Below are positions 30,924 through 45,588 of a stretch of 64,000 nt of DNA, in pieces. The stretch comes from an uncultured Methanomassiliicoccus sp. (GTDB lineage Archaea; Thermoplasmatota; Thermoplasmata; Methanomassiliicoccales; Methanomassiliicoccaceae), in the NCBI GenBank assembly GCA_944319735.1, contig CALUEU010000002.1, positions 248,001 to 312,000 of the forward strand, read 5' to 3'. Under the pieces are notes generated by a model that worked only from the letters and a program-made list of their open reading frames with translations, made no database searches and had not been told where the DNA came from. The translations under genes and the position numbers were made by a program. Position 1 is the first letter of the stretch, and each line of letters begins with the position of its first letter.

Positions 30924-30935
30924 TTATTCATCACA

Positions 30936-31478
30936 TCATTTTAATTGCTGTGCAATGGATTGCAACCCCATACGGGATAGAACATACTCATTGTCAGTAT
31001 TCCAAATTCCAAAGGCCAAGCTCTCTATGGATGCAAATGTAAAATCCTTTGGAGTTGCATTTGAATCCTTTGATATCTTAAGACTGAATGCATATTCTGT
31101 TGTAGACTCACCGCTTTTTGGCTTTTTAACATGTAAAAAAACCTGCTGAATTGAAATCTTAAGTGTATTTAAATTTGTTTCATTTAAGAATTTTTTTAAA
31201 TTATTAATTATATCATCTGCCGTGAACCAGTTTTCTGTACCGGTTATGCCTTTCAGGAATGAGTTGAATCCGTCTACCAGTTCTGCTAATGTAAACGGCT
31301 CGGCATTATAATTCATGGATGGCATAATCAGCAGTTCTTTACTTTCGTCTGCATGAGATTCCAGAGTTCCACATAGGGAAACATTCAATAGTTTGAATCC
31401 TACAGCTATGCTCATCTGTGTTGTTGCAGCACTATCTGCAAGATATTCATATTGCTGACTGATTAATTCATCTGCCAT
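30936..31478 (-). CDS. uncharacterised 180-residue protein in the MBL operon
   Basis: I do not recognise this protein. It has no signal peptide or membrane helix. It alternates short amphipathic strands (MSIAVGFKLLNVSLCGTL, KISIQQVFLHVKK, TEYAFSLKIS) with helices (LAELVDGFNSFLKGI, ADDIINNLKKFLN). The layout recalls repeated strand-helix units in the 1119-residue neighbour, which may make it a detached module or partner of that protein. Good ribosome-binding site AGGTGA upstream of the ATG. Confidence 0.75.
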   Translation of the reverse strand: MADELISQQYEYLADSAATTQMSIAVGFKLLNVSLCGTLESHADESKELLIMPSMNYNAEPFTLAELVDGFNSFLKGITGTENWFTADDIINNLKKFLNETNLNTLKISIQQVFLHVKKPKSGESTTEYAFSLKISKDSNATPKDFTFASIESLAFGIWNTDNEYVLSRMGLQSIAQQLK

Positions 31479-31495
31479 TTTTTCACCTTTTTACT

Positions 31496-34400
31496 TCATT
31501 CATCCACTATCGGAATTCTTACTCTGTAATTCTTCAGTTTTTGTTTGCTTTCAAGATTCTCCTGAACCCTTGATTTCATGTTCTGCAGGCGCTGAGATTC
31601 TGAATTCTCACAGACCTTGAGGAACATGACATTGACAATTGGCTCATTTGCCGGGTTTATGAAATATGTCTCTTTATCTTCCAACTCAAATCTATCCAAG
31701 GAGTTGTCTGGTGCATTTTCATCATTTAATGAAAAATCAGAACAAATATTGAAAACGCTTTCGTAGTACAGTTCTCCCAAGTCTTCTGAATCGTTGCTGC
31801 GGTCTTGTTCTGGAAGAGAAATGAAAATGCTATCCTGAACAGATCTGGTCGCTTCTTGGAAATTTTCATCCATTTTAGAAATAATTTCTCTCTGTTCAAA
31901 TAGGTATTCTTGAAAATTCCTGAACTTTTTTCCTTTTTCTTCTAAAGATTTAAGGACGTTTTCAGAGCAGTCGTTCTGAGTATCGTTTGCCTGCGTTTCT
32001 CTCTTTACCTGCTGAATCAGAGATTCACAGTCTACATCGAGAAGCATCTCGAAGTTTCCCATCCACTGGGAACGGGCATTGCTCAGCCTGTTGACAATCT
32101 GCCCGGTTCTACTTTCCATTAGATCATCATCATACCCATAGATATGTTTGTAAAATGCTCCCAGAGCTCCATAGGTACTAGCTGACTTAGATACAAATTC
32201 AAGGCCATCTGAAATGCATTGGCGGTACTCATCACAGTCTGTGTATGGAAAGTCGCTTTGTTCAATATAGTCTTTCAAGGCAGAATCTATGCATGACGCA
32301 GCATCTAATTGATTCATGTTGTTCAACTCAGACCGTGTTCTGCTGGTGACATTGTTGGATACACTGTTGTGTATGCCACCGCTGACATCGCCTGAGAGAG
32401 ATGCTGAAGTGTTTACAGTATAATCTTTCCCAAAGAGTGTGAAACAGGCGCTCAGGGCAGCACTCATGCTTTGGCTTGCTTTAGCATCAAGAGTTATTGA
32501 GACTTCTTTAAGATAAAATATTGACGATACGGCTTCCACCAATTTCTGTATGAGCCAGCCTACTGCTTCAGTGACCTGTTTTACTGCTTCTAATGCTAAT
32601 TTGGCGATCTCCAAAGCAGCATAGGCAACACCCATGGCAACATATATGCCCGCTTTTTCAATTTCCAACACTCCTAGTACACATAAGTAATATGGTTCTT
32701 TCCAGAATAAATACCATTCAAGATGTGCTAATTCATAGGAATAAGAATCAATTTTTCTGTTAACCTCATCAATCTGATATTGTAAACTCAGCACCTGCTG
32801 CTGAGCATATGCAAGTTTGTTTTGAACATCAGTGATTCTGGCTTGAGTCTTGGCAACAAAATCTCTTACGATGTTTATTACTGTTTGAGCAATATCCTGA
32901 AAGAATGAGAAATCAAGTATTATCTTGAAGAAGAATGAGGAATTATTGAAGTCGCTGTATGATGCCGAGAGCATCAAACGCGCCTCTATCAGGAAAAATT
33001 CTATTTGCGCATATAAGTAAAACGATCCAGATTCGAATGACAGGTATGCAGCAGCCTTCAATGGAGGAAATGCAATCTCCAGAGAGGCATCAAGATACAT
33101 TCTGTAATTATTTTTCTTCAAACAAATATAAAATACCGGGCCGTCTCCGTCATGGAGATATTGCTCCACAATGCTGTTGGATCCAGTTTCCATCAATACG
33201 CAGTTTTTACTTGATTTTGTAAGTTTGATCCATGAGTTTTGGATCGGAGCAACCATTACCAAAACTTCGAAGCCGTTCTTATCGTCAACTTCTCCGTAAA
33301 TATTGATTCTCTGTTTTAGAATCTCGATTGATGCACATACAAACATCCCTTTGTACAGATTATAGCTGCCTGCTGACAGATTCGCTTCTGTACAGTAATA
33401 AAATTGAGGAGACAGGGAGATTTTTCCGCTTTTGGTTATAGAATAATGTCTGACGTTTATTTCATCAGTCAGAATCCAGCCGTCGCTGCCGTCTGTCCTT
33501 ACAATTATGGAGTCGCCTTTGGCCGGGCTGCACGGCCTCCCTCCCAGCCTGCCGCTGCACGCTGCATTGAATTCTTCAGCTATTTTCTTCAGGCCTTCTC
33601 TGGAGAGGTCAGAAAATACAGCAGTTTCCATCGTCGTGGATTCAAGAGGAAAAGGTTCCAGTTTGATAAGATCAAAGTAATCTGCTCCTGGCAGAGTCAC
33701 ATGCATCAGGGACTGTATCAGCGAGGATATACTGAGCCTGTTCAACGCAAGACCCATTGCCAGGATTCTTATCGCTTTGCCTTCTACTTGAGCGAAGAAA
33801 AGAGCAAACAGATCTATATTCTGAAGCTGCACAATTCCCCAGATTCCAAAAGTCAGCAGACCCTTTGATTCTCCTATCGAAAGGCCGATCTGATGTAATG
33901 AAAACAAGTCTCCGAATGATATCGGAGCCCCTCTATATTCAGCAGATATTCCAAAGCTTGATGCAGATGCTTTGCAATCTACAATGAATGTTGACGCCTG
34001 TCCGTTAATCTCAAAATCCAGCATTCCTTTGACATCTATGACTATTTGGGATCCAAGCTGCAGGGAGCAGTCTAGATATCTGAGGCTTAGGATGTCATCC
34101 ATTAGTTCAAGTGTCTCAGAGTCTTTTGTTATCCTTATGAGAATAAATGACGGGGATCCGTAGCCGGCGGTTAGAGAAACCGTAGACCCGCTGGGTATGA
34201 TTCTTCCCAGACTGCGCAGAAATTCAAGAGAGCTTGATTCAAGAACTGCTTTTCCTGAAACTATTATACTCAGATTATCCAGTTCCCTTCGATCCAGAAG
34301 AACTATCTTTTCAAACACGCTTTTATCAAAGACTGCCTTCTCTATTTTTGAAAGTCTGCGGCCTGCATCTAAAAATGATGTTACTGCTCCTTTCTTGAAG

Positions 34401-34855
34401 CCGATGCAGAGATTCATGGCTCCGGCAACTTCAATAAGATTGGTTAGAAAATCTGTGAACTGGTCATTAGCGCCCAGCTTATCATTCAGACTTTGATCTG
34501 TAAATGACAGCAGCAGTAAGAGACTGCCTCCGTTTTTCAGGATTCCTAGGGCAGCTGACTCTTTGCTTGATAAAACATGACCAACAGTTGCAAGATTTCC
34601 CTGGCTGTCATATATCAGTGCTGTTTCAAGTTTCAAGTCTTTAACTAGTGGATATAACGGAGATTCTCGAAATTCTCTCTCCCAATCTGGTGATAGATTT
34701 GAGAGAAGCTTGAGAAGGTCATTCTCAGTCAGACTGCAGGCGCCAGACAATGTTATGATGTCTGATCTTCTTTCAATCTGGGCCGTCATATGAATTCCCA
34801 GAATCGTACCGGAGACCTGTAATGCGACAGAAGGACCATCAAGGCCGTTTGTCAC
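31496..34855 (-). CDS. uncharacterised 1119-residue protein with beta-rich N-terminal half and helical core
   Basis: Not recognised. GTG start at 34855; the frame is fully open. Residues 1-620 are beta-rich with repeated hydrophobic strands (GLLTFGIWGIVQLQNIDLFALFFAQV). At about 650-720 is a coiled coil (LAYAQQQVLSLQYQIDEVNR), followed by long Ala-rich amphipathic helices (GIYVAMGVAYAALEIAKLAL) that could insert in or lie on membranes. A Ser/Asn/Thr-rich stretch and an acidic helical tail follow. No signal peptide. A structural, pore-forming or toxin-like role is possible but unproven. Confidence 0.8.
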   Translation of the reverse strand: MTNGLDGPSVALQVSGTILGIHMTAQIERRSDIITLSGACSLTENDLLKLLSNLSPDWEREFRESPLYPLVKDLKLETALIYDSQGNLATVGHVLSSKESAALGILKNGGSLLLLLSFTDQSLNDKLGANDQFTDFLTNLIEVAGAMNLCIGFKKGAVTSFLDAGRRLSKIEKAVFDKSVFEKIVLLDRRELDNLSIIVSGKAVLESSSLEFLRSLGRIIPSGSTVSLTAGYGSPSFILIRITKDSETLELMDDILSLRYLDCSLQLGSQIVIDVKGMLDFEINGQASTFIVDCKASASSFGISAEYRGAPISFGDLFSLHQIGLSIGESKGLLTFGIWGIVQLQNIDLFALFFAQVEGKAIRILAMGLALNRLSISSLIQSLMHVTLPGADYFDLIKLEPFPLESTTMETAVFSDLSREGLKKIAEEFNAACSGRLGGRPCSPAKGDSIIVRTDGSDGWILTDEINVRHYSITKSGKISLSPQFYYCTEANLSAGSYNLYKGMFVCASIEILKQRINIYGEVDDKNGFEVLVMVAPIQNSWIKLTKSSKNCVLMETGSNSIVEQYLHDGDGPVFYICLKKNNYRMYLDASLEIAFPPLKAAAYLSFESGSFYLYAQIEFFLIEARLMLSASYSDFNNSSFFFKIILDFSFFQDIAQTVINIVRDFVAKTQARITDVQNKLAYAQQQVLSLQYQIDEVNRKIDSYSYELAHLEWYLFWKEPYYLCVLGVLEIEKAGIYVAMGVAYAALEIAKLALEAVKQVTEAVGWLIQKLVEAVSSIFYLKEVSITLDAKASQSMSAALSACFTLFGKDYTVNTSASLSGDVSGGIHNSVSNNVTSRTRSELNNMNQLDAASCIDSALKDYIEQSDFPYTDCDEYRQCISDGLEFVSKSASTYGALGAFYKHIYGYDDDLMESRTGQIVNRLSNARSQWMGNFEMLLDVDCESLIQQVKRETQANDTQNDCSENVLKSLEEKGKKFRNFQEYLFEQREIISKMDENFQEATRSVQDSIFISLPEQDRSNDSEDLGELYYESVFNICSDFSLNDENAPDNSLDRFELEDKETYFINPANEPIVNVMFLKVCENSESQRLQNMKSRVQENLESKQKLKNYRVRIPIVDE

Positions 34856-35000
34856 AAAGGCATATGATATTATTTGATATTAATACTTTTATTTTTTTAT
34901 GACATTCTATACTCAAATTCTCTGAGTCTGTAATTTCTTAGAATGATGGATTATTCTGACGGCTTGCCATTGAGTATTGCAAGACTGCCAATATCAAAAA

Positions 35001-35261
35001 TTATTCACTTCTTAGACTGTTGTCCGCCTTTACAGACTGCATGCGCTCTTTGCAGCCGCACTTCGGACATTTGACCACTTTACTTTCTGAATTATCATTT
35101 GACAGAAGCATTCTGCCGGCATTCGGCTTGAACTCGCAGCCGCATTTCGGGCATACAAAACTCTCTAGTTTGTAAAATTTAAAATACCAGTATGCAGCCG
35201 CAGCGATGACGATAACTGCCATGCAGGTTGCAACAGCGAAAATAATCTGTGATCCGCTCAT
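35001..35261 (-). CDS. small membrane-anchored zinc-ribbon protein
   Basis: An 86-residue protein with an N-terminal transmembrane helix (about 6-28, IIFAVATCMAVIVIAAAAYWY) and two CPKCGC knuckles (about 37 and 64), forming one four-Cys zinc site. Function unknown; common archaeal architecture. It is upstream of the 1119-residue gene on the same strand, with 145 bp between, so not obviously in that operon. Confidence 0.75.
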   Translation of the reverse strand: MSGSQIIFAVATCMAVIVIAAAAYWYFKFYKLESFVCPKCGCEFKPNAGRMLLSNDNSESKVVKCPKCGCKERMQSVKADNSLRSE

Positions 35262-35359
35262 TCAATTCCTCAACACTTCATGCAGATGCGTGATATCAAC
35301 TTTGGCACTCTATTTACTGTGAATATAAATCAATCTTAATGTATACCTTAAGCGGATAG

Positions 35360-35596
35360 ATGATGATTCACGAACTGAAGATCCTGCCAGAATATTTTGA
35401 AGCCGTTACAGACGGTACTAAACGTTTTGAACTTAGAAAAGATGACAGAGGATTTGCAGTTGGAGATGAAATTGTACTCAAAGAATGGAATGGTGCAGAG
35501 TACACAGGCCGTTCTGTGAAAAAGCAGATATCTTACATCTTGAAAAATTACACGGGGCTTGCAGAAGGATATGCAGTTCTGAGTCTGAAAGACTGA
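35360..35596 (+). CDS. DUF3850/ASCH-like small RNA-binding-fold protein
   Basis: A 78-residue protein whose IHELKILPEYFEAVTDGTKRFELRKDDRGFAVGD opening matches DUF3850, a compact PUA/ASCH-superfamily domain thought to bind RNA or modified nucleotides. Two adjacent ATGs (35360, 35363); either may be used. TATAAATC about 35 nt upstream indicates its own promoter with a very short leader. Confidence 0.85.
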   Translation: MMIHELKILPEYFEAVTDGTKRFELRKDDRGFAVGDEIVLKEWNGAEYTGRSVKKQISYILKNYTGLAEGYAVLSLKD

Positions 35597-35688
35597 TCGT
35601 TTCGAGTTAAATATGATTTTTCAAATTACGACTGTTAATAAGTCTCTAATAATGCATAATCTATCACCAGCACATACAGTGATTCTTC

Positions 35689-37338
35689 ATGAAGACTGAT
35701 GTTGAAATTGCAAGCGAAGCACGCATGGAACCGATACAGTCTGCGGCTTCTAAACTTGGTTTTACACCTGACGATCTGCATCTTTACGGCAAATATGCTG
35801 CCAAAATTCCTCTGGACATTCTCAAGCGTTTCGACAGTAAGCCAGACGGTAAACTAGTTCTTGTTACTGCCATCACCGCCACTAAGGCCGGGGAAGGCAA
35901 AACAGTCACATCAATCGGTCTGATTGAAGCACTGGGCCGTTTGGGCGTGAAGGTGGCTGGAGGCCTCAGAGAACCCTCCATGGGACCGGTGTTTGGCATC
36001 AAGGGAGGAGCTACCGGAGGCGGCTATGCACAAGTCTACCCGATGTGGGATATCAACCTGCACTTCACAGGCGACATTCATGCAGCCTCAGCAGCCCATA
36101 ATCTTCTCTCGGCAATGGTGGAGAATCATCTTGCAAAGGGCAACGAGCTGCAGATTGATCCTACCAGAGTGACATGGAAGAAAACAATGGATACAAACTG
36201 CAGGGAACTCAGAAATGTTGTTGTCGGTCTGGGAGGAAAAAGCACCGGTGGAATCCCGAGAGAAAGCGGGTTCATCATCACATCAGCATCTGAAATCAGC
36301 GCCATCCTTGCTTTGGCAAATTCCGTCTCAGATTTAAGGAAAAGACTGGGAGAGATAGTCGTAGCCTACAACATTCACGGCAAGCCGGTAACCGCAGAAC
36401 AGATCGGCTGCGTGGGTGCAATGATGTTAATCCTCAAGGATGCCATCAATCCCAACTTAGTTCAGACTTTAGAAGGAGACCCCGTTTACATTCATGGATT
36501 TCCCTTTGCCAACATCGCCCATGGTAACAGCAGCGTCATTTCTACAAAATACGGCTTGAAGACTGCAGACGTTTTAGTGACTGAAGGAGGGTTTGCTGCC
36601 GATCTGGGAGCTGAAAAGTTCTTTGACATAGTGTGCAAGCAGGCTGGCTTCCGTCCGGACTGTGCAGTCGTCGTTGCTTCTATCAGAGCAATCAAACTTC
36701 ATGATGCACTAGGGGAAGAGTCACTGGAGCGTGGCTTTGCCAATCTGGATAAGCATGTTGAGAATATCAAGAAGTTCGGCGTGCCTCCTGTAGTTGCCAT
36801 TAACCGCTTTTCTATTGATACCGATGAAGAAATCGAGGCGGTAAGAAAGCACTGCGGAAAGCTGGGAGTGCCCTGTGCAATTTCAGAAGTCTTTGCTAAA
36901 GGCGGTGAAGGGGGAAAAGAGCTGGCACAGGCAGTTATGAAGGTTCTTGAAGAAGGCAAGGCTGATTTTCACACCCTCTATGAGGATTCATTGACAATTA
37001 AAGAAAAAATCCACAGGATTGCTACAGAAATTTACGGAGCTTCCGGAGTCAGATATGTGGGAACTGCTGAAAGAGATATAAAATCAATAGAGCAGTCAGG
37101 CAAAGGAAGCCTGCCAATCTGTGTCGCCAAGACTCAACTGTCAATTTCAGACAACCCGGCGCTCAAGGGAGCCCCGACAGGCTGGGAGCTGGAAGTCAGA
37201 GAAGTCACTCTGTCTGCTGGAGCAGGCTTCATCGTTCCTATATGCGGAACGATCATGCTGATTCCTGGTCTGCCTACCGATCCGGCCGCCAAGCATATTG
37301 ATTACACAGACGACGGAAAAATCATCGGTCTGAGCTGA
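35689..37338 (+). CDS. fhs: formate-tetrahydrofolate ligase
   Basis: ATP-dependent formation of 10-formyl-THF from formate and THF. The 549-residue length is typical. P-loop-like TATKAGEGKT appears here as ITATKAGEGKTVTSIGL (about 60-75), followed by LREPSMGPVFGIKGGATGGGYAQV and NLHFTGDIHA. It feeds the reductive THF branch (FolD step not in window), then MetF/MetV encoded about 3 kb downstream, and supplies PurH. Rare in archaea outside certain lineages, so likely of bacterial ancestry. Confidence 0.97.
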   Translation: MKTDVEIASEARMEPIQSAASKLGFTPDDLHLYGKYAAKIPLDILKRFDSKPDGKLVLVTAITATKAGEGKTVTSIGLIEALGRLGVKVAGGLREPSMGPVFGIKGGATGGGYAQVYPMWDINLHFTGDIHAASAAHNLLSAMVENHLAKGNELQIDPTRVTWKKTMDTNCRELRNVVVGLGGKSTGGIPRESGFIITSASEISAILALANSVSDLRKRLGEIVVAYNIHGKPVTAEQIGCVGAMMLILKDAINPNLVQTLEGDPVYIHGFPFANIAHGNSSVISTKYGLKTADVLVTEGGFAADLGAEKFFDIVCKQAGFRPDCAVVVASIRAIKLHDALGEESLERGFANLDKHVENIKKFGVPPVVAINRFSIDTDEEIEAVRKHCGKLGVPCAISEVFAKGGEGGKELAQAVMKVLEEGKADFHTLYEDSLTIKEKIHRIATEIYGASGVRYVGTAERDIKSIEQSGKGSLPICVAKTQLSISDNPALKGAPTGWELEVREVTLSAGAGFIVPICGTIMLIPGLPTDPAAKHIDYTDDGKIIGLS

Positions 37339-38128
37339 ACTCTTCAGCGTACTCTTCCAGCGTTACAAACTCAAAATCTTTATCAAGAGCGTAGGACAGA
37401 ATGTCTCTCAGCTCTTCCTTATTTTGTTTTACTTTCTCTTTTGAAAACATTCCTGAGTAATTTTCTACCACATGCCATGAGTGATCTCCAAACACCAGCA
37501 GCGGCACATCTTTTGACATGAGATATTTGTAATCGGCAGGAGAACGTTTTCCTTCATGTAGGGGCCATAAATAAGACTGCATCCACCTACCACCTGAGTC
37601 TCTTGTTTTCAAGATCGGTATTTCTAGAATTTTGTCTTTGACGCAGATGCATTCATCATCTGCCTTTACGGTCGACGAGCTGTATTTAAATCCTAAATTT
37701 GAAATTATCGAGCGTATGCGGTCATCATAGTGAAGGTAAGGTGCTCTGAATCCTCGAGGATCTTTTTTGAAGACTTCTCTTACTGCTCTGATCCCTTTTT
37801 CTACAGCTTCTTTTATTTCTTCATTGGTAAGAATTACTCCGCTGTCTTTTCCTGTCAGATCCTCATGGTTGTAACCATGGCATGCGATCTCGTGATTCCT
37901 CATTAAGTCTCTTAAATCACAGTCTGCACTGATGACTTCAGCAGTTCTGCCTTCCATGAAAAACGTGCCTTTAATTCCCAGCTCATTCAAAACATCAATG
38001 AATATCTTCAAACCTTCAGAAGATGAACTGAAACGGGTGCAGCCGTCAGGACAGACAGCATCAGGGCTGCCCTGTGCTGCTTGATTAACATCTCTGTCGA
38101 CATCTACCGTAAATGATATCAGAGCCAC
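37322..38128 (-). CDS. polysaccharide deacetylase family protein
   Basis: The 268-residue NodB-type carbohydrate esterase domain has the catalytic Asp in FTVDVD (about 5-10), the metal-binding H-x3-H in CHGYNHEDL, and the FRAPYLHYDDR motif. No signal peptide, so cytoplasmic; cytoplasmic members often act on sugar precursors or as amidases. The 3' end overlaps the fhs stop by 17 bp (convergent). Confidence 0.88.
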   Translation of the reverse strand: MALISFTVDVDRDVNQAAQGSPDAVCPDGCTRFSSSSEGLKIFIDVLNELGIKGTFFMEGRTAEVISADCDLRDLMRNHEIACHGYNHEDLTGKDSGVILTNEEIKEAVEKGIRAVREVFKKDPRGFRAPYLHYDDRIRSIISNLGFKYSSSTVKADDECICVKDKILEIPILKTRDSGGRWMQSYLWPLHEGKRSPADYKYLMSKDVPLLVFGDHSWHVVENYSGMFSKEKVKQNKEELRDILSYALDKDFEFVTLEEYAEEFSSDR

Positions 38129-38206
38129 AAACCGCTATATTCTTGTCTGTTATTCAAGCTTCCTTCATAAAATGAATAAACTATAGCATCATCTCAGAGG
38201 AACAAT

Positions 38207-39208
38207 ATGTACGAAGTCGGGATCATCGGGGGAGGAGCTGCCGGACTTGCCGCGGCTCTCGAGCTTTCCAGGAGGAGAGTATCTTCTGTAGTGATAGATT
38301 CCGACAAGCACATAGGCGGCTTGTCAAGAGACTTGTGTTGCAAAGCAAACCCGGTCTGTCAGAGATGTGATGCCTGCTCTCCTGTAGATATCAGGAGGGA
38401 GGTAAGGAAGTCTCCATTCGTTACGCTGATATCTAGTTCTGATGTAATCGATGCCTCCGGCGGACCAGGAGCGTACACACTTTCACTTCAGTCATCTTCA
38501 GGCATCTCGGAGATTGAGGTAAAATCTGTAATCGTAGCTATTGGATCGCCGACTTTTGATGCTGCTAGGGATGCAAGGTACCGTTATTCCGACTGTGCTG
38601 ACGTCCTTACCTCTAGAGATTTGGAGACAATGATGATTTCCGGCAACATCAGTGTGCCCTCAACTGGTAAAACTCCTCAGAGTCTGGCAGTTATTCAATG
38701 TGTAGGTTCCAGGGATGCCAAACACGGCGCCCCCTATTGCTCCAAGGTGTGCTGCAAGTACTCCCTTAAGCTTGTGAAACGAGTCAGAAAGGAGCTGCCG
38801 GAGATTGAAGTTACATTTTTCTACAGAGACTGGAGGCCTTCTGACAGGGAATATGACAAACTTGCTGAATATGGTAAGGAAAAGGGTGTGCATGTAGTAA
38901 GAAGCAGGCCGGCAGAAGTCATAATCGGTTCCAGGCCATTAGTCAGATACGCCACGGTTGAAGACGAAGTCCGCGAAGATCCGTTTGACATTGTTGTACT
39001 GGCGGTAGGACTCCAGCCTCCGCAGAACTCACAGAAGCTCGCTTCCTCTTTAGGTATGGAATGCAACCAATACGGCTTCTTTATCAAGAAAGGAGAGGGA
39101 GCTTATGCCGCCGGTTGCTGCACCGGTCCCAAGGATATCAGAGAAAGTGTGGAAGAAGGCATAGCTGCTGCAGGCAAGGCAGCTGCATTTCTGGAGGGCC
39201 TTCAATGA
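38207..39208 (+). CDS. HdrA-like FAD protein, N-terminal half
   Basis: A 333-residue FAD-binding protein: dinucleotide motif GIIGGGAAGLAAALEL (6-21), then a Cys cluster CCKANPVCQRCDAC (about 44-57) where HdrA binds a cluster, then the HdrA signature QCVGSRDAKHGAPYCSKVCC (about 163-182). It lacks the ferredoxin domain of full HdrA, which is encoded by the next gene with a 4-bp overlap. Likely the flavin core of an electron-transferring complex with MvhD, MetV and MetF. Confidence 0.85.
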   Translation: MYEVGIIGGGAAGLAAALELSRRRVSSVVIDSDKHIGGLSRDLCCKANPVCQRCDACSPVDIRREVRKSPFVTLISSSDVIDASGGPGAYTLSLQSSSGISEIEVKSVIVAIGSPTFDAARDARYRYSDCADVLTSRDLETMMISGNISVPSTGKTPQSLAVIQCVGSRDAKHGAPYCSKVCCKYSLKLVKRVRKELPEIEVTFFYRDWRPSDREYDKLAEYGKEKGVHVVRSRPAEVIIGSRPLVRYATVEDEVREDPFDIVVLAVGLQPPQNSQKLASSLGMECNQYGFFIKKGEGAYAAGCCTGPKDIRESVEEGIAAAGKAAAFLEGLQ

Positions 39209-40284
39209 TTCTCATCGTAGGGGGAGGGAAATCTTCAGAGATTGCCGCGGAAGAGGTCATACGTCAAGGCGCTGTTCCGTTGCGCCTGGTGCTTCCTGAA
39301 GAGACTTTTTCATTCTTGCCTGACGTTGAAACGGTCAAAGGCAGGCTTCTTAGTTTTACGGGCGTACAGGGAAATTTCCAGGCAGAGATTGAGATTGACA
39401 GGGAAGTTAAAAAATTCAATGTCGGCGCTGCTGTCATTGCCGTAGACGAAACCCCTAAAGTCTCTGATACAGACTGCATAACATTATCTTCAATTTTAGA
39501 AAATAATTATCTGAAATGCAGCGGCACGATTGTAATTCTGCTTGACGCCAAGAAGCCTTCCCGTGCATCTCACATCGTGGCGGTGGAGAAAGCCATTGAA
39601 ATAAAAGACAACAATCCAGACTGCAGAATTTATATCATTACTCCGGAAGTGAGGACCTTCGGACTTGACGAACTTGAGTACTGCAAGGCTCAGAAGAAAG
39701 GCATTATTTTCATCAGGGCAGAGGATATCAAGCACTCTTCAGGCAAAATGAAAGTAACCGATTCGCCGTCAGGAAAAGTACTGGATATTACACCTGACTT
39801 AGTAATTACGGATGAAGAGCAGGAAGTAAAGAACGCTGCTCTCTGGGCAAAGGCCTTTTCCATCAATCTTTATGAGGATGGTCATTTCCGCCTGGGAAAT
39901 GTGAGCAGAGGTCCTGTGACTTCAATGAGGAACGGAGTCTTTCTCTGCGGTACCGCTTCACGCGCCCTGCTGCCGAGGGAAATGGATACTTCCGCCAGAG
40001 CTGCTGCAACACGAGCTGTGACAGCTTCTCAGACTCCTTTAATGCTTAATTCAGCAGAAGTCGACGAGGAGAAATGTGCTTCCTGTATGACCTGCGTCAG
40101 AGTATGTCTGTTTCATGCTCCTTCCATCAATGAGAAAGGTAAGTCTGAGATCTGCAGAGATCTCTGCCAGTCCTGCGGACTGTGTGTAAATCTCTGTCCT
40201 GCTTCTGCCATTTCTTTCAAAGGAGTTTCAAGGATAGAACTCAGAAATGCCGTTGACGATGTCCTGAGGTGTTTGCATGAATGA
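39205..40284 (+). CDS. HdrA-like C-terminal half with 2x[4Fe-4S] ferredoxin domain
   Basis: A 359-residue protein starting with a Rossmann-like MILIVGGGKSSEIAAE and resembling the second half of HdrA. It ends in two [4Fe-4S] motifs, CASCMTCVRVC and CQSCGLCVNLCP (about 290-340). The ATG at 39205 overlaps the previous stop; the longer in-frame start at 39061 is an artefact of the overlapping gene. Together the pair reconstitutes a split HdrA. Confidence 0.82.
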   Translation: MILIVGGGKSSEIAAEEVIRQGAVPLRLVLPEETFSFLPDVETVKGRLLSFTGVQGNFQAEIEIDREVKKFNVGAAVIAVDETPKVSDTDCITLSSILENNYLKCSGTIVILLDAKKPSRASHIVAVEKAIEIKDNNPDCRIYIITPEVRTFGLDELEYCKAQKKGIIFIRAEDIKHSSGKMKVTDSPSGKVLDITPDLVITDEEQEVKNAALWAKAFSINLYEDGHFRLGNVSRGPVTSMRNGVFLCGTASRALLPREMDTSARAAATRAVTASQTPLMLNSAEVDEEKCASCMTCVRVCLFHAPSINEKGKSEICRDLCQSCGLCVNLCPASAISFKGVSRIELRNAVDDVLRCLHE

Positions 40285-40669
40285 CTGCAGTATTTTGATA
40301 ATTTGTTGTGAAAAAATGAAAGAAACAGTGGAGAGAGCCAGCCTTGAAAACTCTGCAGTCTTAGCACTTCCATGTTTGGGAAGAATTGACGAGGCCGTTA
40401 TTCTGCGTGCTTTCAGGAAAGGAGCAGATGCCGTCATAGTTGCGGGCTGTGTCGAAGGAAACTGCAAATACAACTCTGGAAACTACCAGGCCAGACGCTG
40501 TGTGAATGAAGTCAGAGACATTCTTGAAGAAATAGGCATCAGCGGCGAGAGGCTGGAAATTCTGAACTTATCTCCTAATCAAGCAGTTGATTTAGTTAAT
40601 TTATTTGAAAATATGAAAGAAGTCGTGCTGAGGCTGGGACATCCCGACATCCTGGGGGCCGAAAGATGA
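40277..40669 (+). CDS. mvhD: MvhD-like iron-sulfur electron-transfer subunit
   Basis: A 130-residue protein of the MvhD/HdrA-associated family, which carries a [2Fe-2S] cluster between an electron donor and HdrA. Conserved: LPCLGRIDEAVILRAFRKGADAVIVAGC, GNCKYNSGNYQA. The N-terminal cysteine pair is adjacent (ICCE) rather than the usual CxxC, a possible ligand change. Overlaps both neighbours (8 and 4 bp). No hydrogenase subunits nearby, so the donor may be MetVF. Confidence 0.88.
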   Translation: MNDCSILIICCEKMKETVERASLENSAVLALPCLGRIDEAVILRAFRKGADAVIVAGCVEGNCKYNSGNYQARRCVNEVRDILEEIGISGERLEILNLSPNQAVDLVNLFENMKEVVLRLGHPDILGAER

Positions 40670-41367
40670 TAATTGCTGAAAGAAAACCAATTTCTGAGAT
40701 TATTTCAATTATTGGAAACAATAAGAAAATACTGATTGCCGGCTGCCGTTCCTGTGCGTCTGTATGTATGGCGGGCGGTGACAGGGAAGTTGCCACTTTG
40801 TCTGAAGCTCTCGGTCTGTACTCAGACTTGAATTCCCTGGGATGGGAGATATCTGAAATTTCTAAAGAAAGGCAGTGTGAGAAGGAGTGGGCCAGAGAGA
40901 TTGCCGAAGAGGCTTCTTCAGCAGATGTCATTTTGTCTCTGGGATGCGGGGTTGGAGTGCAGTTTATTCAGGAAGTAAGCGGCATTCCCGTTTTTCCTGG
41001 ACTTAACACCTCAAACATGGGAGGACCGGAAGAACAGGGAATATACCTGGAGAAATGCGGTGGCTGCGGAGACTGTACTCTCCATCTCACCGGCGGGATC
41101 TGTCCTATTGCAAGATGTTCAAAATCTATGCTCAACGGCCCCTGCGGCGGCTCTCAGAACGGGAAATGCGAAATTAATCCTGATACTCAATGCGCCTGGG
41201 ATGCAATTTACCAGAACCTCAAGAGGCTGAACTGCCTGGAGATGCTTTCAGAAATAATTCCGCCTAAAAACTGGATCCCTTCTAGGTCTGGCGGTCCCAG
41301 AAAGATCATCCGTAAAGAGATGGTTTTAAGCGAAGACGAGAAAAAAATCAAGGAGGGTCTAGAATGA
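40666..41367 (+). CDS. metV: MetV-like zinc/iron-sulfur subunit of methylene-THF reductase
   Basis: A 233-residue protein of the MTHFR C-terminal (MetV) family: ILIAGCRSCASVCMAGG near the N-terminus, a LGCGVGVQ segment, and CGGCGDC...GGICPIARCSKSMLNGPCGG, which in bacterial MetV binds clusters. It partners with MetF in acetogen-type methylene-THF reductases that lack NAD(P)H chemistry on MetF alone. Coupled to mvhD and metF by 4-bp overlaps. Confidence 0.9.
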   Translation: MIIAERKPISEIISIIGNNKKILIAGCRSCASVCMAGGDREVATLSEALGLYSDLNSLGWEISEISKERQCEKEWAREIAEEASSADVILSLGCGVGVQFIQEVSGIPVFPGLNTSNMGGPEEQGIYLEKCGGCGDCTLHLTGGICPIARCSKSMLNGPCGGSQNGKCEINPDTQCAWDAIYQNLKRLNCLEMLSEIIPPKNWIPSRSGGPRKIIRKEMVLSEDEKKIKEGLE

Positions 41368-42260
41368 GTCATTTGAAAGACGTCCTAGAATCAGGAAAGT
41401 TCGCCGTGACTGCTGAGATAAGCCCGCCTAAGTCTGCTTCGTGTGAAACAATCAGAAAAAAAGCCGCCATGCTCAAAGACTGCGTCGACGCCGTCAACCT
41501 TACCGACAATCAGACCGCTATCGTAAGAATCTCCAGTTTCGCTTCTTCTCTGGCCTGCCTGCAGGAGGGAGTCGAGCCGATACTGCAGATGACCTGCCGC
41601 GACAGAAACAGAATCGCCATGCAGTCCGACGTTCTCGGCGCCTCTGCTTTCGGCATTCACAATGTAATGTGTTTATCTGGAGACCACCAGAGCTTCGGCA
41701 ATCAGAAGGAGGCTAAGAACGTCTATGACGTCGACTCGATCCAGCAGCTGATGATTTTCAATAAGATGCGTCTTGAAGGTCAGGTCTGGGGAGGAGACGA
41801 GCTTAAAGAGAAGCCGGAATTGTTTCTCGGAGCTGCTGCCAATCCCTTTGCCGATCCTTTTGAATTCAGAGTTCAGAGGTTAGCTAAGAAAATTGCCGCC
41901 GGTGCTGATTTCATTCAGACTCAGGCTGTGTTTGATATTGAAAGATTCAGAGAGTTCATGTCTTCCGTTTGTGACAGAGGCCTCGATAAAAAAGTGCATA
42001 TTCTGGCCGGTGTCATGCCTCTAAAATCTTACAATATGGCCGAACACATGAAAAACAATGTCTCAGGCATCACTCTGCCGGATGGAATGATCTCCAGGAT
42101 GAAATCTGCCGCTGATCCTAAGGAAGAAGGTCTGGCAATCTGCAATGAGACCATTGAAGAAATAAAGAAGATAAAGGGAGTGCACGGCGTGCACATAATG
42201 GCTATTTCCTGGGAATCAGTTGTTCCCAGAATTATTGAAGATGCTGATCTGAGAGATTAA
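41364..42260 (+). CDS. metF: 5,10-methylenetetrahydrofolate reductase
   Basis: Flavin-dependent reduction of methylene-THF to methyl-THF. The 298-residue TIM barrel begins EISPPKSASCETI and contains VNLTDNQTA, LQMTCRDRNR, CLSGDH and FIQTQAVFD, all MetF landmarks. Last gene of the coupled hdrA-hdrA-mvhD-metV-metF run. Its stop overlaps by 4 bp the stop of the convergent methyltransferase gene, whose likely substrate is its product. Confidence 0.96.
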   Translation: MSHLKDVLESGKFAVTAEISPPKSASCETIRKKAAMLKDCVDAVNLTDNQTAIVRISSFASSLACLQEGVEPILQMTCRDRNRIAMQSDVLGASAFGIHNVMCLSGDHQSFGNQKEAKNVYDVDSIQQLMIFNKMRLEGQVWGGDELKEKPELFLGAAANPFADPFEFRVQRLAKKIAAGADFIQTQAVFDIERFREFMSSVCDRGLDKKVHILAGVMPLKSYNMAEHMKNNVSGITLPDGMISRMKSAADPKEEGLAICNETIEEIKKIKGVHGVHIMAISWESVVPRIIEDADLRD

Positions 42261-43033
42261 GCTCTCAGAAAATCATCACAGTAGAGCGACCTGTTCAGCA
42301 AGATCTCTCCGGCCTTGAGGGATTCCATCAGTTCTTTGTCTTCAGGATCCATGATTGCTGAAGACAGTCCGGCGCCCATGAGCATTGCCAGATATGTTGT
42401 GTTGATGAGACTGCGGTTCTTTGCTCCGTTAGAAACATTGCTCAGACCGACTACAGTCCTCGGCGCCGGCTCATTGAGCGACTGAAACATGTTTACTGCT
42501 TGAATGACCTTTGCACATTGATCCTGAGCTGCACAGACTGGCATAACAAGAGGATCTAGAAACAGACGGTCAGGCATAATCTCATATTCCATTGCAGTAG
42601 CCATCATCAGCATGGCCATTTCAGCTCTGGCGTCAGCGGAGTTCGGTATTCCTTTTTCATCCATGCAGAGGCAGATGATTTCTGCGTTGTATTCCCTGCA
42701 GATGGGGAAATATTTCTCCATGCGCGCCGGGTCTGCATTGGTTGAATTCATGATAATCGGATTGTTGCACGCTTTGACTCCAGCTTCCATGGTTTTAGGT
42801 CCGAAGGCATCGATGCACAGAGGGACATCAGTCACTTCCTGGACAGTTGAGACAAGCCAGGTCATGTCTTCCGGGCCGTTGTCTCTTCCCGGTCCTACGT
42901 TGATATCCAAAGCATGGGCGCCGCTGTCTACCTGTTTCAAAGCGAGTTCCTGAATGAATTTTGAATCTCTGTTATCTATCGCCTTTCCTACTGAAATGAA
43001 CTGCCCGTTGATCCTTTCGCTGATTATGAACAC
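42257..43033 (-). CDS. AcsE/MtrH-like methyl-THF corrinoid methyltransferase
   Basis: A 258-residue pterin-binding TIM barrel (DHPS-like) that transfers methyl between methyl-THF and a corrinoid protein. Conserved: SERINGQF, ALDINVGPGRD, NSTNAD, FLDPLVMP and VGLSNVSNG. GTG start at 43033 with GGTGTGATG upstream. Convergent with metF, suggesting a methyl branch Fhs-(FolD)-MetVF-AcsE, though no acs/cdh corrinoid partner is in this window. Confidence 0.88.
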   Translation of the reverse strand: MFIISERINGQFISVGKAIDNRDSKFIQELALKQVDSGAHALDINVGPGRDNGPEDMTWLVSTVQEVTDVPLCIDAFGPKTMEAGVKACNNPIIMNSTNADPARMEKYFPICREYNAEIICLCMDEKGIPNSADARAEMAMLMMATAMEYEIMPDRLFLDPLVMPVCAAQDQCAKVIQAVNMFQSLNEPAPRTVVGLSNVSNGAKNRSLINTTYLAMLMGAGLSSAIMDPEDKELMESLKAGEILLNRSLYCDDFLRA

Positions 43034-43144
43034 GCATCACACCTTTCCAACTGTATTTAGAATGGTGATATTATCATTTCTGCTTCATTGATGGAAATCA
43101 GCTAGGCAGCGATAGAATACAATTCTAATAGTAATTAAAAAAAT

Positions 43145-43708
43145 TTAGAGAGGTAAGACCTCTCTTTGATACTGTTCGTTGATGACTTCTCCGAATGCCC
43201 TGTACATTGCAGAGCCTCCGCAGATAACTCCCAGAGCACCGGATATTATCGGAATTATCTCACTGCCTGTGAAGTCACCTGCAGCGATGATAAAGAACAA
43301 TAACGCCAGTGTTCCAAAAATTACTTTCAGTGAAGTGTCGGAGCGCAGCGTTCCTATGAAAAGGAAAAGCGTCAGAATTCCCCACAGCAGGAAGAACATT
43401 CCTCCAGCCGTTGCAGTATTTGCTTCACCGAATGGATTCAGGACTATGAGGACGAAAGCCATCCAGAAAAATCCGTATGATGTGAAGGCAGTAGCTCCAA
43501 AAGTGTTCCCATTCTTATACTCCATAATTCCTGCGATCAGCTGTGCCAGTCCGCCGTAGAAAATTCCCAGCGCCAGGATTGTAATATCCATGGGGAACAG
43601 CCCTAAATTATGAAATGACAGCAGTACCGTTGTCATCCCGAAACCAAGAAGCCCTAAGGGCGCAGGGTTTGCAAGAACTTTGGTCGGCATATTGTTTTTG
43701 TCGGCCAT
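43145..43708 (-). CDS. satP: acetate/succinate transporter (SatP/GPR1-FUN34-YaaH family)
   Basis: A 187-residue membrane protein with six transmembrane helices and the family signature NPAPLGLLGFG (about 14-24). FYGGLAQLIAGIMEYKNGNTFGATAFTSYG forms the pore constriction region. Moves acetate or succinate with protons, or acts as an anion channel. No N-terminal extension, normal length. Confidence 0.93.
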   Translation of the reverse strand: MADKNNMPTKVLANPAPLGLLGFGMTTVLLSFHNLGLFPMDITILALGIFYGGLAQLIAGIMEYKNGNTFGATAFTSYGFFWMAFVLIVLNPFGEANTATAGGMFFLLWGILTLFLFIGTLRSDTSLKVIFGTLALLFFIIAAGDFTGSEIIPIISGALGVICGGSAMYRAFGEVINEQYQREVLPL

Positions 43709-44031
43709 GAAATGTTGATTAAATTCTGCTATATATTAGTTTTAGTATTTGTTGAATATATCATTCGTTAATCGACGATGTAATATTATTATTGGATCTC
43801 GATTAGACTGTAATTCGTCATCTCTCAGCGATATCCGCAGTATATTGCAGGATATTCTATGCTACGAAAATACATCTAAAAATCATCAAAATCGAAAGAT
43901 ATGCCTCTCAAAATTCAAGATTACACTTGTCTTACCGATTGATTCAGACGTTTTTGATAATAAGCTTCATATGGGAAGGTAAGATATATAGCTGGTAAAC
44001 CTCACGGTTTGCTTTTCGTGGAGGCCTGATT
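43709..44031. other. intergenic region between satP and purH
   Basis: A 323-bp AT-rich stretch without a credible gene. It holds a near-perfect palindrome (43831-43855: ATATCCGCA, GTATAT, TGC-A-GGATAT, one bulged A), a TATA box AGATATATAG (43982-43991) and GGAGG (44020-44024) for purH. A 77-codon open frame here has no ribosome-binding site and no recognisable features. Confidence 0.5.
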
Positions 44032-45588
44032 TTGGTCAAGATAGAACGCGCACTTGTAAGTGTCTCGGATAAGAATGGTATAGTAGACTTCGCAGATGCA
44101 TTGCGCTCACGCGGAGTAGAGTTAATCTCAACCGGCGGAACTGCAACTCTGCTCAATGACAGGGGCATCCCCACCGTGAACGTTTCAGACATCACCGGAT
44201 TCCCGGAGATGCTTGATGGACGCGTTAAGACATTGCATCCCAACGTCCATGCAGGCATACTGGCCCGCAGAGACGTTCCTGAGCACATGGAACAGCTCAA
44301 TAAGATGAACATCAAGAAGATCGATATGGTTGTTGTAAACCTCTATCCCTTCAAACAGACAGTTCTCAAACCAAATTCCACTCTGGAAGACATCATTGAA
44401 AACATTGACATCGGCGGTCCTTCTATGATCCGTGCTGCCGCTAAGAACTATAATTCCGTGGCAGTTGTGACAGATCCTTCTTACTACGGTCCGATCATTG
44501 AAGAGATGGACAGCAACAACGGAGAAATCGGTGAAGAGACGCTCAAACGTCTGATGCTTGAAGCTTACCGTTCTACAGCTGCATATGACTGCATGATTTC
44601 AGAATATCTTGGCGGAGTGTTCCCTACAGAGCAGTTCCCGAAATATCTCACCATCGGCATGGAGAAGGTTCAGGACCTCCGTTACGGCGAGAATCCTTCC
44701 CAGGCTGCAGCCTTCTATGCTGATCCGTTTGCTAAAGGGGTAGCGGCATCAAGACTTGAGAAACTGCATGGAAAAGAGATTTCATTCAACAATATTCTCG
44801 ATATTGAGTCTGCTCTCTCGCTGCTGCGTGAATTTGAAGACCGCGCCTGTGCCGTTGTGATAAAGCACACAAATCCCTGTGGAATTGCCTGCGACGACAA
44901 CATCTATGATGCTTTCGTCACAGCTTACAACGTCGACTCTCTGGCAGCATTCGGCTGCGTGATCGGCCTGAACAGGGAATGCGATGCAGCCACAGCTGAT
45001 GAGATAAGCAAGCATTTTGTCGAGATTGTCATGGCTCCTTCCTTCTCTGATGAAGCATTAGAGATTCTGACCCGCAAGAAGAATGTCAGGATCATGAGGA
45101 CCAATGAGGCTGTGACACTTGCTGACGCACCTACTTTAAAAATGAAATATGTCAAAGGCGGAATGCTAGTGCAGACAGCTGACAACTCTCAAGTTACCCG
45201 TGATAATCTCAGAGTTGTAACAAACCGTGCCCCTACAGAGGAAGAACTCAAGACTCTGCTGTTTGCCAACCGTGTGGTCAAACATATCTGGTCAAACACA
45301 GTCATTCTCGCTAAAGGAGAAAGAGTTGTAGGAATCGGAGCAGGCCAGATGTCCCGTGTCGATTCTTCATTCATTGCCGGGCACAAGGCAGGCGAGGATG
45401 CAAAAGGCTCAGTCATGGCTTCTGATGCCTTCTTCCCCTTCAGGGACGGAGTCGACGAGGCTGCTAAGGTCGGAGCTACTGCCATCATTCAGCCTGGTGG
45501 ATCCATTCGTGACGAAGAAGTGATTCAGGCCGCCAACGAACACAACATGGCAATGGTGTTTACCGGCAGCCGTGTGTTCAGGCACTAA
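44032..45588 (+). CDS. purH: bifunctional AICAR transformylase/IMP cyclohydrolase
   Basis: Last two steps of IMP synthesis using 10-formyl-THF. The 518-residue product has an N-terminal MGS-like cyclohydrolase domain (LVSVSDKNGIVDFA, STGGTATLL, GFPEMLDGRVKTLHP) and a C-terminal transformylase domain (KHTNPCG, AAFGCVIGLNRECD). The TTG start at 44032 is backed by GGAGG eight bases upstream. Most archaea use PurP and PurO instead, so this bacterial-type gene fits the THF-based metabolism next to it. Confidence 0.97.
   Translation: MVKIERALVSVSDKNGIVDFADALRSRGVELISTGGTATLLNDRGIPTVNVSDITGFPEMLDGRVKTLHPNVHAGILARRDVPEHMEQLNKMNIKKIDMVVVNLYPFKQTVLKPNSTLEDIIENIDIGGPSMIRAAAKNYNSVAVVTDPSYYGPIIEEMDSNNGEIGEETLKRLMLEAYRSTAAYDCMISEYLGGVFPTEQFPKYLTIGMEKVQDLRYGENPSQAAAFYADPFAKGVAASRLEKLHGKEISFNNILDIESALSLLREFEDRACAVVIKHTNPCGIACDDNIYDAFVTAYNVDSLAAFGCVIGLNRECDAATADEISKHFVEIVMAPSFSDEALEILTRKKNVRIMRTNEAVTLADAPTLKMKYVKGGMLVQTADNSQVTRDNLRVVTNRAPTEEELKTLLFANRVVKHIWSNTVILAKGERVVGIGAGQMSRVDSSFIAGHKAGEDAKGSVMASDAFFPFRDGVDEAAKVGATAIIQPGGSIRDEEVIQAANEHNMAMVFTGSRVFRH

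What the first reader, a model, noticed from the sequence alone, without database searches (positions are those of the whole stretch)
38207..43033. Split-HdrA/MvhD/MetV/MetF unit facing an AcsE-like methyltransferase
Five genes overlapping by 4-8 bp encode the flavin and ferredoxin halves of HdrA, an MvhD-type carrier, MetV and MetF, with Fhs upstream and a corrinoid methyltransferase convergent. It resembles acetogen-type MetVF-HdrABC-MvhD complexes but lacks HdrBC and hydrogenase and has a split HdrA. It may be a reduced, possibly bifurcating, methylene-THF reductase in an archaeon.
Basis: partly seen in the sequence, partly recalled or inferred. Interest (0 to 1): 0.65.

Follow-up and report, generated by a model that had tools for sequence, protein, structure and literature searches.

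The report
Stripped-down methyl-making redox enzyme operon
A methane-making archaeon carries a conserved operon for an enzyme that makes methyl groups on folate, using a bacterial acetogen-style electron module that has lost several of its usual parts, so its relatives show a natural series of simplification of an electron-splitting machine.

Summary
In detail: HdrA1, HdrA2, MvhD, MetV and MetF (38207-42260) overlap by 4-8 bp, with Fhs upstream and an AcsE-type methyltransferase convergent. The host is a Methanomassiliicoccales genome that also encodes FolD, dihydropteroate synthase, AcsBCD, AcsV and MvhAGD, but no detectable CODH.

The two HdrA proteins are not halves of one HdrA. They are two paralogous subunits matching the N- and C-terminal parts of the fused HdrA in Moorella-type (6S) MetVF-HdrABC-MvhD reductases. 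The same split arrangement also occurs in several bacteria.

In the order, the unit is inherited vertically in four families; HdrA1 occurs only with MetV (26 of 26 near-complete genomes). A fifth family has MetVF alone. The window's family has lost both domains that form the ferredoxin branch in methanogenic HdrA; HdrBC and an NADH (GltD) domain are also absent.

Best reading: an HdrBC-free, probably non-bifurcating five-subunit methylene-THF reductase passing electrons from H2 or ferredoxin through MvhD-HdrA2-HdrA1 to MetVF; AcsE then hands the methyl group to the corrinoid protein. Complex formation, donor and direction are inferred. HdrA1 keeps the E/K bifurcation signature, so bifurcation is not excluded. 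This is a new variant of a known kind.

The parts
35689..37338 (+). Fhs, formate--tetrahydrofolate ligase, 549 aa
   Evidence: Pfam FTHFS E 1e-241, NCBIfam PRK13505 above cut-off; upstream of the unit in nearly all relatives whose contig reaches that far
37322..38128 (-). Polysaccharide-deacetylase-like protein, divergent from HdrA1; role in the unit unknown but position conserved
   Evidence: Pfam PF01522; same place in families f1, f2, f3, f5, f6
38207..39208 (+). HdrA1, 333 aa: thioredoxin-reductase-like FAD domain with C(K)-CxxCDxC and CxnCxxxCC cysteine sets; no inserted ferredoxin domain, no N-terminal or C-terminal FeS domain
   Evidence: phmmer and Foldseek to HdrA of 5odc and to 6tjr (TM 0.90); residue table; AlphaFold2 pLDDT 86
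39205..40284 (+). HdrA2, 359 aa: degenerate thioredoxin-reductase-like domain plus C-terminal 2x[4Fe-4S] ferredoxin domain; lacks the HdrA N-terminal FeS domain
   Evidence: start codon from ATGA overlap
40277..40669 (+). MvhD/FlpD-type [2Fe-2S] carrier, 130 aa, four conserved Cys
   Evidence: PF02662 E 5e-29; alignment with the genome's own hydrogenase MvhD
40666..41367 (+). MetV, 233 aa, FeS/Zn partner of MetF with NGPCGG motif and 12 invariant Cys in eight relatives
   Evidence: PF12225 E 9e-36; alignment A1
41364..42260 (+). MetF, methylene-THF reductase catalytic subunit, 298 aa
   Evidence: PF02219 E 5e-39; only MTHFR in the genome
42257..43033 (-). AcsE-type methyl-THF:corrinoid FeS protein methyltransferase, 258 aa, convergent
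   Evidence: PRK07535 294.7 bits over cut-off 259; phmmer to 2yci/1f6y E 1e-71 and 6e-70
43145..43708 (-). SatP/AceTr acetate uptake transporter next to the methyltransferase
   Evidence: NCBIfam AceTr_1 236.6 bits over cut-off 50
44032..45588 (+). PurH-like purine biosynthesis enzyme (10-formyl-THF user), end of the conserved block; identified by inspection
   Evidence: sequence and conserved position after the methyltransferase in many relatives

Best explanation
The five overlapping genes encode one HdrBC-free, Hdr-type methylene-THF reductase. MetF (flavin) and MetV (FeS) form the catalytic core. HdrA1 and HdrA2 form a heterodimer equivalent to the two TrxR units of the fused HdrA of Moorella-type reductases, and MvhD is the electron entry. 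In this family the low-potential (ferredoxin) branch of HdrA has been lost, so electrons most likely run in a single line: H2 via the genome's MvhAG, or reduced ferredoxin, to MvhD and the HdrA2 ferredoxin domain, to the HdrA1 FAD and its FeS clusters, to MetV, to MetF, giving methyl-THF. The C1 unit enters as formate through Fhs and FolD. The convergent AcsE-type enzyme passes the methyl group to the AcsCD corrinoid protein, for methionine (the methionine-synthase-like gene in the acs cluster) and for acetyl-CoA (AcsB). Shown here: gene identity, conservation, co-occurrence, domain losses, and presence of the partner genes. Inferred: complex formation, electron donor, direction, lack of bifurcation.
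For: Operon with 4-8 bp overlaps in the window, and the same gene order in families f1, f2, f3, f6. HdrA1-type protein found in 32 of 147 genomes of the order; all 26 of these that are at least 90% complete also have MetV, and in 27 of 32 both lie on one contig. MetV co-occurs with AcsE (45 of 47, Fisher p 1e-28) and with ACS (42 of 47, p 2e-12); these p-values ignore shared ancestry. MetV+MetF tree follows family boundaries, so inheritance is mainly vertical. HdrA1 groups with the N-terminal TrxR domain of fused Met-type HdrA (SH-aLRT 99), HdrA2 lies outside with the C-terminal halves. Window HdrA1 aligns to 5odc HdrA skipping residues 237-308, the inserted ferredoxin domain. HdrA2 lacks the N-terminal FeS domain that f2, f3 and most f6 relatives keep. 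The genome's own hydrogenase-linked HdrA (1007 aa) keeps all these domains and serves as internal control. FolD, dihydropteroate synthase, MvhDGA, AcsBCD and AcsV are present. In Sporomusa ovata MetV pulled down HdrA and MetF but not HdrB, so direct HdrA-MetV contact is plausible (PMC9430772).
Against: No biochemical data. E356 and K409, the proposed bifurcation signature, are both kept in the window's HdrA1. Sporomusa and Moorella HdrA also lack the inserted ferredoxin domain in their C-terminal half and are still proposed to bifurcate. MvhD divergence from the hydrogenase MvhD leaves docking to MvhAG unproven. HdrBC could be supplied in trans from contig C8.
Confidence: 0.55

Rival explanations
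1. The same complex is electron-bifurcating: HdrA1 flavin splits electrons from H2 (or ferredoxin) between methylene-THF and a second acceptor.
For: E356 and K409 equivalents and the CxnCxxxCC cluster are intact in the window's HdrA1; Moorella and Sporomusa relatives are proposed to bifurcate.
Against: Both domains of the known ferredoxin branch are gone in the window's family; K409 is R, H, Q or G in several relatives; no GltD/NADH domain; no HdrBC.
Confidence: 0.2
2. HdrA1/HdrA2/MvhD assemble with the genome's HdrBC as a second heterodisulfide reductase and are only co-transcribed with MetVF; MetVF works alone like the two-subunit ferredoxin-dependent type.
For: Family f5 has MetVF without the Hdr genes; HdrC-HdrB genes exist on contig C8; MetVF alone uses ferredoxin in C. 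ljungdahlii (PMC8515935).
Against: The HdrA1-type protein never occurs without MetV in genomes at least 90% complete; a separate full-length HdrA-MvhDGA unit already exists; homologous bacterial units also pair split or fused HdrA with MetVF.
Confidence: 0.17
3. The enzyme runs oxidatively, turning methyl-THF (from acetyl-CoA cleavage or corrinoid proteins) into methylene- and formyl-THF for purine and thymidylate synthesis.
For: PurH lies at the end of the block; an oxidative direction was proposed for the pathway in the order by earlier authors (cited in PMC6147122); acetate transporter adjacent.
Against: Fhs can make formyl-THF from formate directly; relatives without MetF keep the rest of the pathway (PMC6147122); electrons from methyl-THF (about -200 mV) would have to go uphill; no CODH in this genome to remove CO from acetyl-CoA cleavage.
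Confidence: 0.15

Closest known systems
Hdr-type (6S) methylene-THF reductase MetVF-HdrABC-MvhD (Moorella thermoacetica, Sporomusa ovata)
   Same: MetV, MetF, MvhD, and two TrxR-type HdrA units; HdrA1 and HdrA2 fall with the N- and C-terminal parts of fused Met-type HdrA
   Different: No HdrB or HdrC genes in the cluster, HdrA unfused, no GltD/NADH domain, HdrA2 without N-terminal FeS domain
2S-type MetVF (Clostridium ljungdahlii)
   Same: MetVF core; this is what family f5 of the same order has
   Different: The window adds HdrA1, HdrA2 and MvhD
HdrABC-MvhAGD of methanogens (5odc)
   Same: HdrA fold, FAD motif, C-terminal ferredoxin domain, MvhD
   Different: Lacks inserted ferredoxin domain, N-terminal FeS domain, HdrBC and MvhAG in the cluster; sits in a MetVF operon
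sHdrA of Hyphomicrobium denitrificans (6tjr)
   Same: Closest full-length structural match of HdrA1, TM 0.90, same minimal domain plan
   Different: Belongs to a sulfur-oxidation (sHdr) system; no MetVF
Paired HdrA paralogues of ANME archaea (Chadwick et al. 2022, PMC9012536)
   Same: Two HdrA paralogues proposed to form a heterodimer; MetFV-HdrA-MvhD cluster noted in Syntrophoarchaeum
   Different: There one partner keeps the N-terminal domain; in the window neither does
AcsE methyl-THF:CoFeSP methyltransferase (Moorella, Carboxydothermus)
   Same: Scores above the family cut-off, full-length match
   Different: Found here in an archaeon; described as bacterium-specific in PMC11338639

Membership tests
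Hdr-type (6S) MTHFR | MetV and MetF, with MetV NGPCGG motif and FeS cysteines | tested here: met
Hdr-type (6S) MTHFR | MvhD in the cluster | tested here: met
Hdr-type (6S) MTHFR | HdrA with two TrxR-type domains | tested here: met
   present as two separate proteins that fall with the two parts of fused Met-type HdrA
Hdr-type (6S) MTHFR | HdrB and HdrC in the cluster | tested here: not met
   no HdrB/C frames at 35000-45000; HdrC-HdrB lie on contig C8
Hdr-type (6S) MTHFR | NADH oxidation through HdrA (GltD domain in Moorella; Sporomusa has none but its HdrA oxidises NADH weakly) | tested here: inconclusive
   no GltD-type insertion in HdrA1 or HdrA2 by length and domain matches; activity not testable
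Hdr-type (6S) MTHFR | E356 and K409 bifurcation signature in a HdrA flavin domain | tested here: met
   both in HdrA1; HdrA2 has E in place of K409; K409 not conserved in all relatives
Hdr-type (6S) MTHFR | Physical complex of MetVF with Hdr subunits | not testable with these tools
   needs purification
2S-type MTHFR | MetVF only, no further electron module | tested here: not met
   HdrA1, HdrA2, MvhD co-encoded; met in family f5
HdrABC-MvhAGD | Inserted ferredoxin domain and N-terminal FeS domain in HdrA | tested here: not met
HdrABC-MvhAGD | C-terminal 2x[4Fe-4S] ferredoxin domain | tested here: met
   two CxxCxxCxxxC motifs in HdrA2
ANME-type complementary HdrA heterodimer | One partner with N-terminal domain, the other with the Cys197 ligand | tested here: not met
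   no N-terminal domain in either partner of the window; relatives f2, f3, most f6 have it in HdrA2
AcsE methyltransferase | Score above curated cut-off of the AcsE-type family and full-length match to solved AcsE | tested here: met
AcsE methyltransferase | CoFeSP acceptor (AcsC, AcsD) encoded | tested here: met
   L078

The most novel reading that the evidence does not exclude
A five-subunit, HdrBC-free, non-bifurcating, H2-linked methylene-THF reductase evolved in Methanomassiliicoccales by stepwise loss of the ferredoxin branch of an electron-bifurcating double HdrA, so that one order holds the bifurcation-capable form (f2, f3, part of f6), the linear form (f1) and the bare MetVF form (f5).
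Probability: 0.4. Interest if true: 0.65.

Novelty: new variant of a known kind. Interest (0 to 1): 0.5.

Why it matters
How Hdr-type methylene-THF reductases take up electrons, and whether they bifurcate, is unsettled because the Moorella and Sporomusa complexes are large, hard to purify and contain two to three predicted HdrA flavins. The window's version is far smaller: one clear FAD domain, one two-cluster ferredoxin domain, one [2Fe-2S] carrier and MetVF. The order offers natural intermediates with and without each domain. That makes the question 'which parts are needed for bifurcation' testable by expression of small soluble proteins. It also documents a largely bacterial-type folate Wood-Ljungdahl set in methyl-reducing methanogens.

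Tried and rejected
Single HdrA cut into flavin and ferredoxin halves: rejected, both proteins match overlapping HdrA profile regions and fall in different paralogue groups. Unique archaeal invention: rejected, the split arrangement also occurs in Aerophobetes, Actinomycetota, Anaerolineae, Atribacteria, Clostridiales, an unclassified bacterium (L110) and another euryarchaeon (L146). Recent lateral gain by this genome: rejected, MetVF follow family boundaries. No Rfam hits in the window. MetV has no solved relative by sequence. The Lang et al. 2015 paper is not in the library. The HdrA2 model fits solved HdrA only in pieces (pTM 0.59, TM about 0.5), so domain packing there is not interpreted.
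Full report
OBSERVATION. The genes are all there, as intact frames, at the stated places. The translational overlaps are 4 bp (HdrA1/HdrA2, ATGA at 39205), 8 bp, 4 bp and 4 bp, and the MetF and methyltransferase stop codons overlap by 4 bp. HMM searches confirm Fhs, HdrA (two proteins), MvhD, MetV, MetF and an AcsE-type methyltransferase. MetF is the only MTHFR in the genome.

HOST. The window lies in a 1.77 Mb, 99.55% complete, 21-contig genome. Contigs of its order-mates from the genome search have the same lengths as named records (for example G127:C34 and PMBU01000099.1, both 23,989 bases, Methanomassiliicoccaceae; G020:C22 and JADFDJ010000002.1, both 227,467 bases, Methanomassiliicoccus; G108:C49 and SKGM01000012.1, both 13,484 bases, Methanomethylophilaceae). 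The order is therefore taken to be Methanomassiliicoccales. The genome has HdrC-HdrB close to methanol-methyltransferase-like genes (MtaB and MtaC by inspection) and a full HdrA(1007 aa)-MvhD-MvhG-MvhA unit.

CONSERVATION. MetV (PF12225) is found in 47 of 147 genomes of the order. In families f1, f2, f3 and f6 the order is Fhs, (a ~200 aa frame, absent in the window), polysaccharide deacetylase on the other strand, HdrA1, HdrA2, MvhD, MetV, MetF, then the convergent methyltransferase, directly or a few genes on, and often PurH. In family f5 the same block lacks HdrA1, HdrA2 and MvhD: Fhs, deacetylase, MetV, MetF, methyltransferase. A profile of HdrA1 finds 32 genomes with strong matches (355 bits or more), clearly set off from the next full-length HdrA matches (282 bits or less). 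All 26 of these that are at least 90% complete have MetV; 27 of 32 carry both on one contig, and the rest are split between contigs or come from genomes under 75% complete. MetV co-occurs with AcsE (45 of 47; Fisher p 1e-28) and ACS (42 of 47; p 2e-12). These p-values ignore shared ancestry.

PHYLOGENY. A tree of concatenated MetF and MetV puts f1, f3, f5 and f6 each on one branch and separates the order from bacterial MetVF (99 SH-aLRT), except for one outlying 'Methanomassiliicoccales' MAG (L140), which joins the bacteria. Inheritance within the order is thus mainly vertical. In a tree of HdrA domains, HdrA1 of the order, HdrA1 of bacteria with the split arrangement, and the N-terminal TrxR domain of fused Met-type HdrA form one group (99), while HdrA2 and the C-terminal halves lie outside it. 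The fused set includes a Thermanaeromonas (Neomoorellaceae) locus. The pair is therefore the unfused form of the double HdrA of Hdr-type methylene-THF reductases, not one HdrA cut in two. The tree is a quick search with some long branches, so only this main split is used.

DOMAINS. Window HdrA1 aligns to the solved HdrA 5odc at 148-236 and 309-563, skipping the inserted ferredoxin domain. Its model (pLDDT 86) matches 6tjr and 5odc with TM 0.90. HdrA2 aligns to 383-650, which includes the C-terminal two-cluster ferredoxin domain. Across the order, the inserted ferredoxin domain is present in HdrA1 of f2, f3 and f6 genera g24, g29, g30, and absent in all f1 and in f6 g25, g27, g28. The HdrA2 N-terminal FeS domain is present in f2, f3 and f6 except g25 (shortened in g30), and absent in all f1. 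The genome's own 1007 aa HdrA keeps both. The four HdrA1 cysteine positions C(K)-CxxCDxC and the C386/C399/C403/C404 set are invariant where covered. E356 is nearly invariant (D in f1 g2). K409 is K in the window but R, H, Q or G in several relatives. HdrA2 lacks the cysteine set and has E in place of K409.

MECHANISM. [quoted passage not shown] The window's family keeps the entry, the FAD and the cluster on the HdrBC side, has lost the ferredoxin side, and offers MetV in the place of HdrBC. In Sporomusa ovata MetV pulled down HdrA but not HdrB. A single-line flow to MetVF is the simplest reading. Thermodynamically, H2 to methylene-THF is strongly downhill (PMC9430772). The E and K residues kept in the window's HdrA1 mean bifurcation cannot be excluded. 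NADH as donor is unlikely because no GltD-type domain is seen. Direction (reductive, from formate) is inferred from Fhs, FolD, AcsE and AcsBCD, and from the reported lack of formate dehydrogenase in the order (cited in PMC6147122).

METHYL FATE. The acs cluster (L078, 184.5-204.4 kb of contig C2) holds AcsC, AcsD, a bacterial-type AcsB (711 aa, above the cut-offs of CODH_ACS_al_bet and PRK09529), AcsV/RACo, a CooC-like ATPase and a distant methionine-synthase-like protein. No Meth_synt_2 protein and no MetH-type pterin domain were found elsewhere, so the last gene is the likely methionine synthase (compare MesC in PMC7857596). No CODH was found, so carbonyl supply for AcsB is unexplained; it may be a gap in the assembly.

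KNOWN AND NEW. The folate branch in this order is reported (PMC6147122; PMC10804542), M. intestinalis was listed as the only archaeal Met complex in 2018 (PMC6085437), a MetFV-HdrA-MvhD cluster was noted in Syntrophoarchaeum (PMC9012536), and MTHFRs are classed as E. coli, 2S, 3S, 6S and X types (PMC8515935). A 2025 survey of 1,152 archaeal HdrA does not mention MetF (PMC12054007). I found no description of the HdrBC-free five-gene form, its order-wide conservation or the reduction series, within the open-licence library only. Verdict: a new variant of the Hdr-type methylene-THF reductase.

Noticed in passing
G000 genome; L078 (contig C2, 184500-204400): Bacterial-type AcsB, AcsC, AcsD and AcsV are present but no CODH/Prismane protein was found in this 99.55% complete genome. 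Eight other genomes of the order also have ACS and no Prismane hit.
   Followed up: partly
L072 and frames of 1362-1379 aa in families f2, f3, f6: CODH and AcsB appear fused into one long open reading frame in several Methanomassiliicoccales. One library search found no report of it.
   Followed up: partly
L078:4454-5470: Distant methionine-synthase-like protein with HCC and TPQCGL motifs inside the acs cluster, the only methionine synthase candidate found in the genome.
   Followed up: partly
window 37322-38128: A polysaccharide-deacetylase-like gene sits between Fhs and the met operon in nearly all relatives, including those without the Hdr genes; reason unknown.
   Followed up: partly
L033:11217-11834 and equivalents: A conserved ~200-220 aa protein of unknown function follows the deacetylase in most relatives but is missing in the window.
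   Followed up: no
window 43145-43708: An acetate uptake transporter lies between the methyltransferase and PurH; not seen at this place in the relatives examined.
   Followed up: partly
window 29112-34855: Low-GC stretch (0.35 at 30-32 kb) with a 603 aa metallo-hydrolase-like protein, a 180 aa protein and a 1119 aa protein, possibly acquired.
   Followed up: no
L181:4019-7042: The hydrogenase-linked HdrA is a 1007 aa double HdrA keeping both E/K pairs, a natural comparison for the reduced pair in the window.
   Followed up: yes
L140: A MAG labelled Methanomassiliicoccales has a fused 1085 aa HdrA and MetVF that group with bacteria; lateral transfer or mislabelled bin.
   Followed up: no
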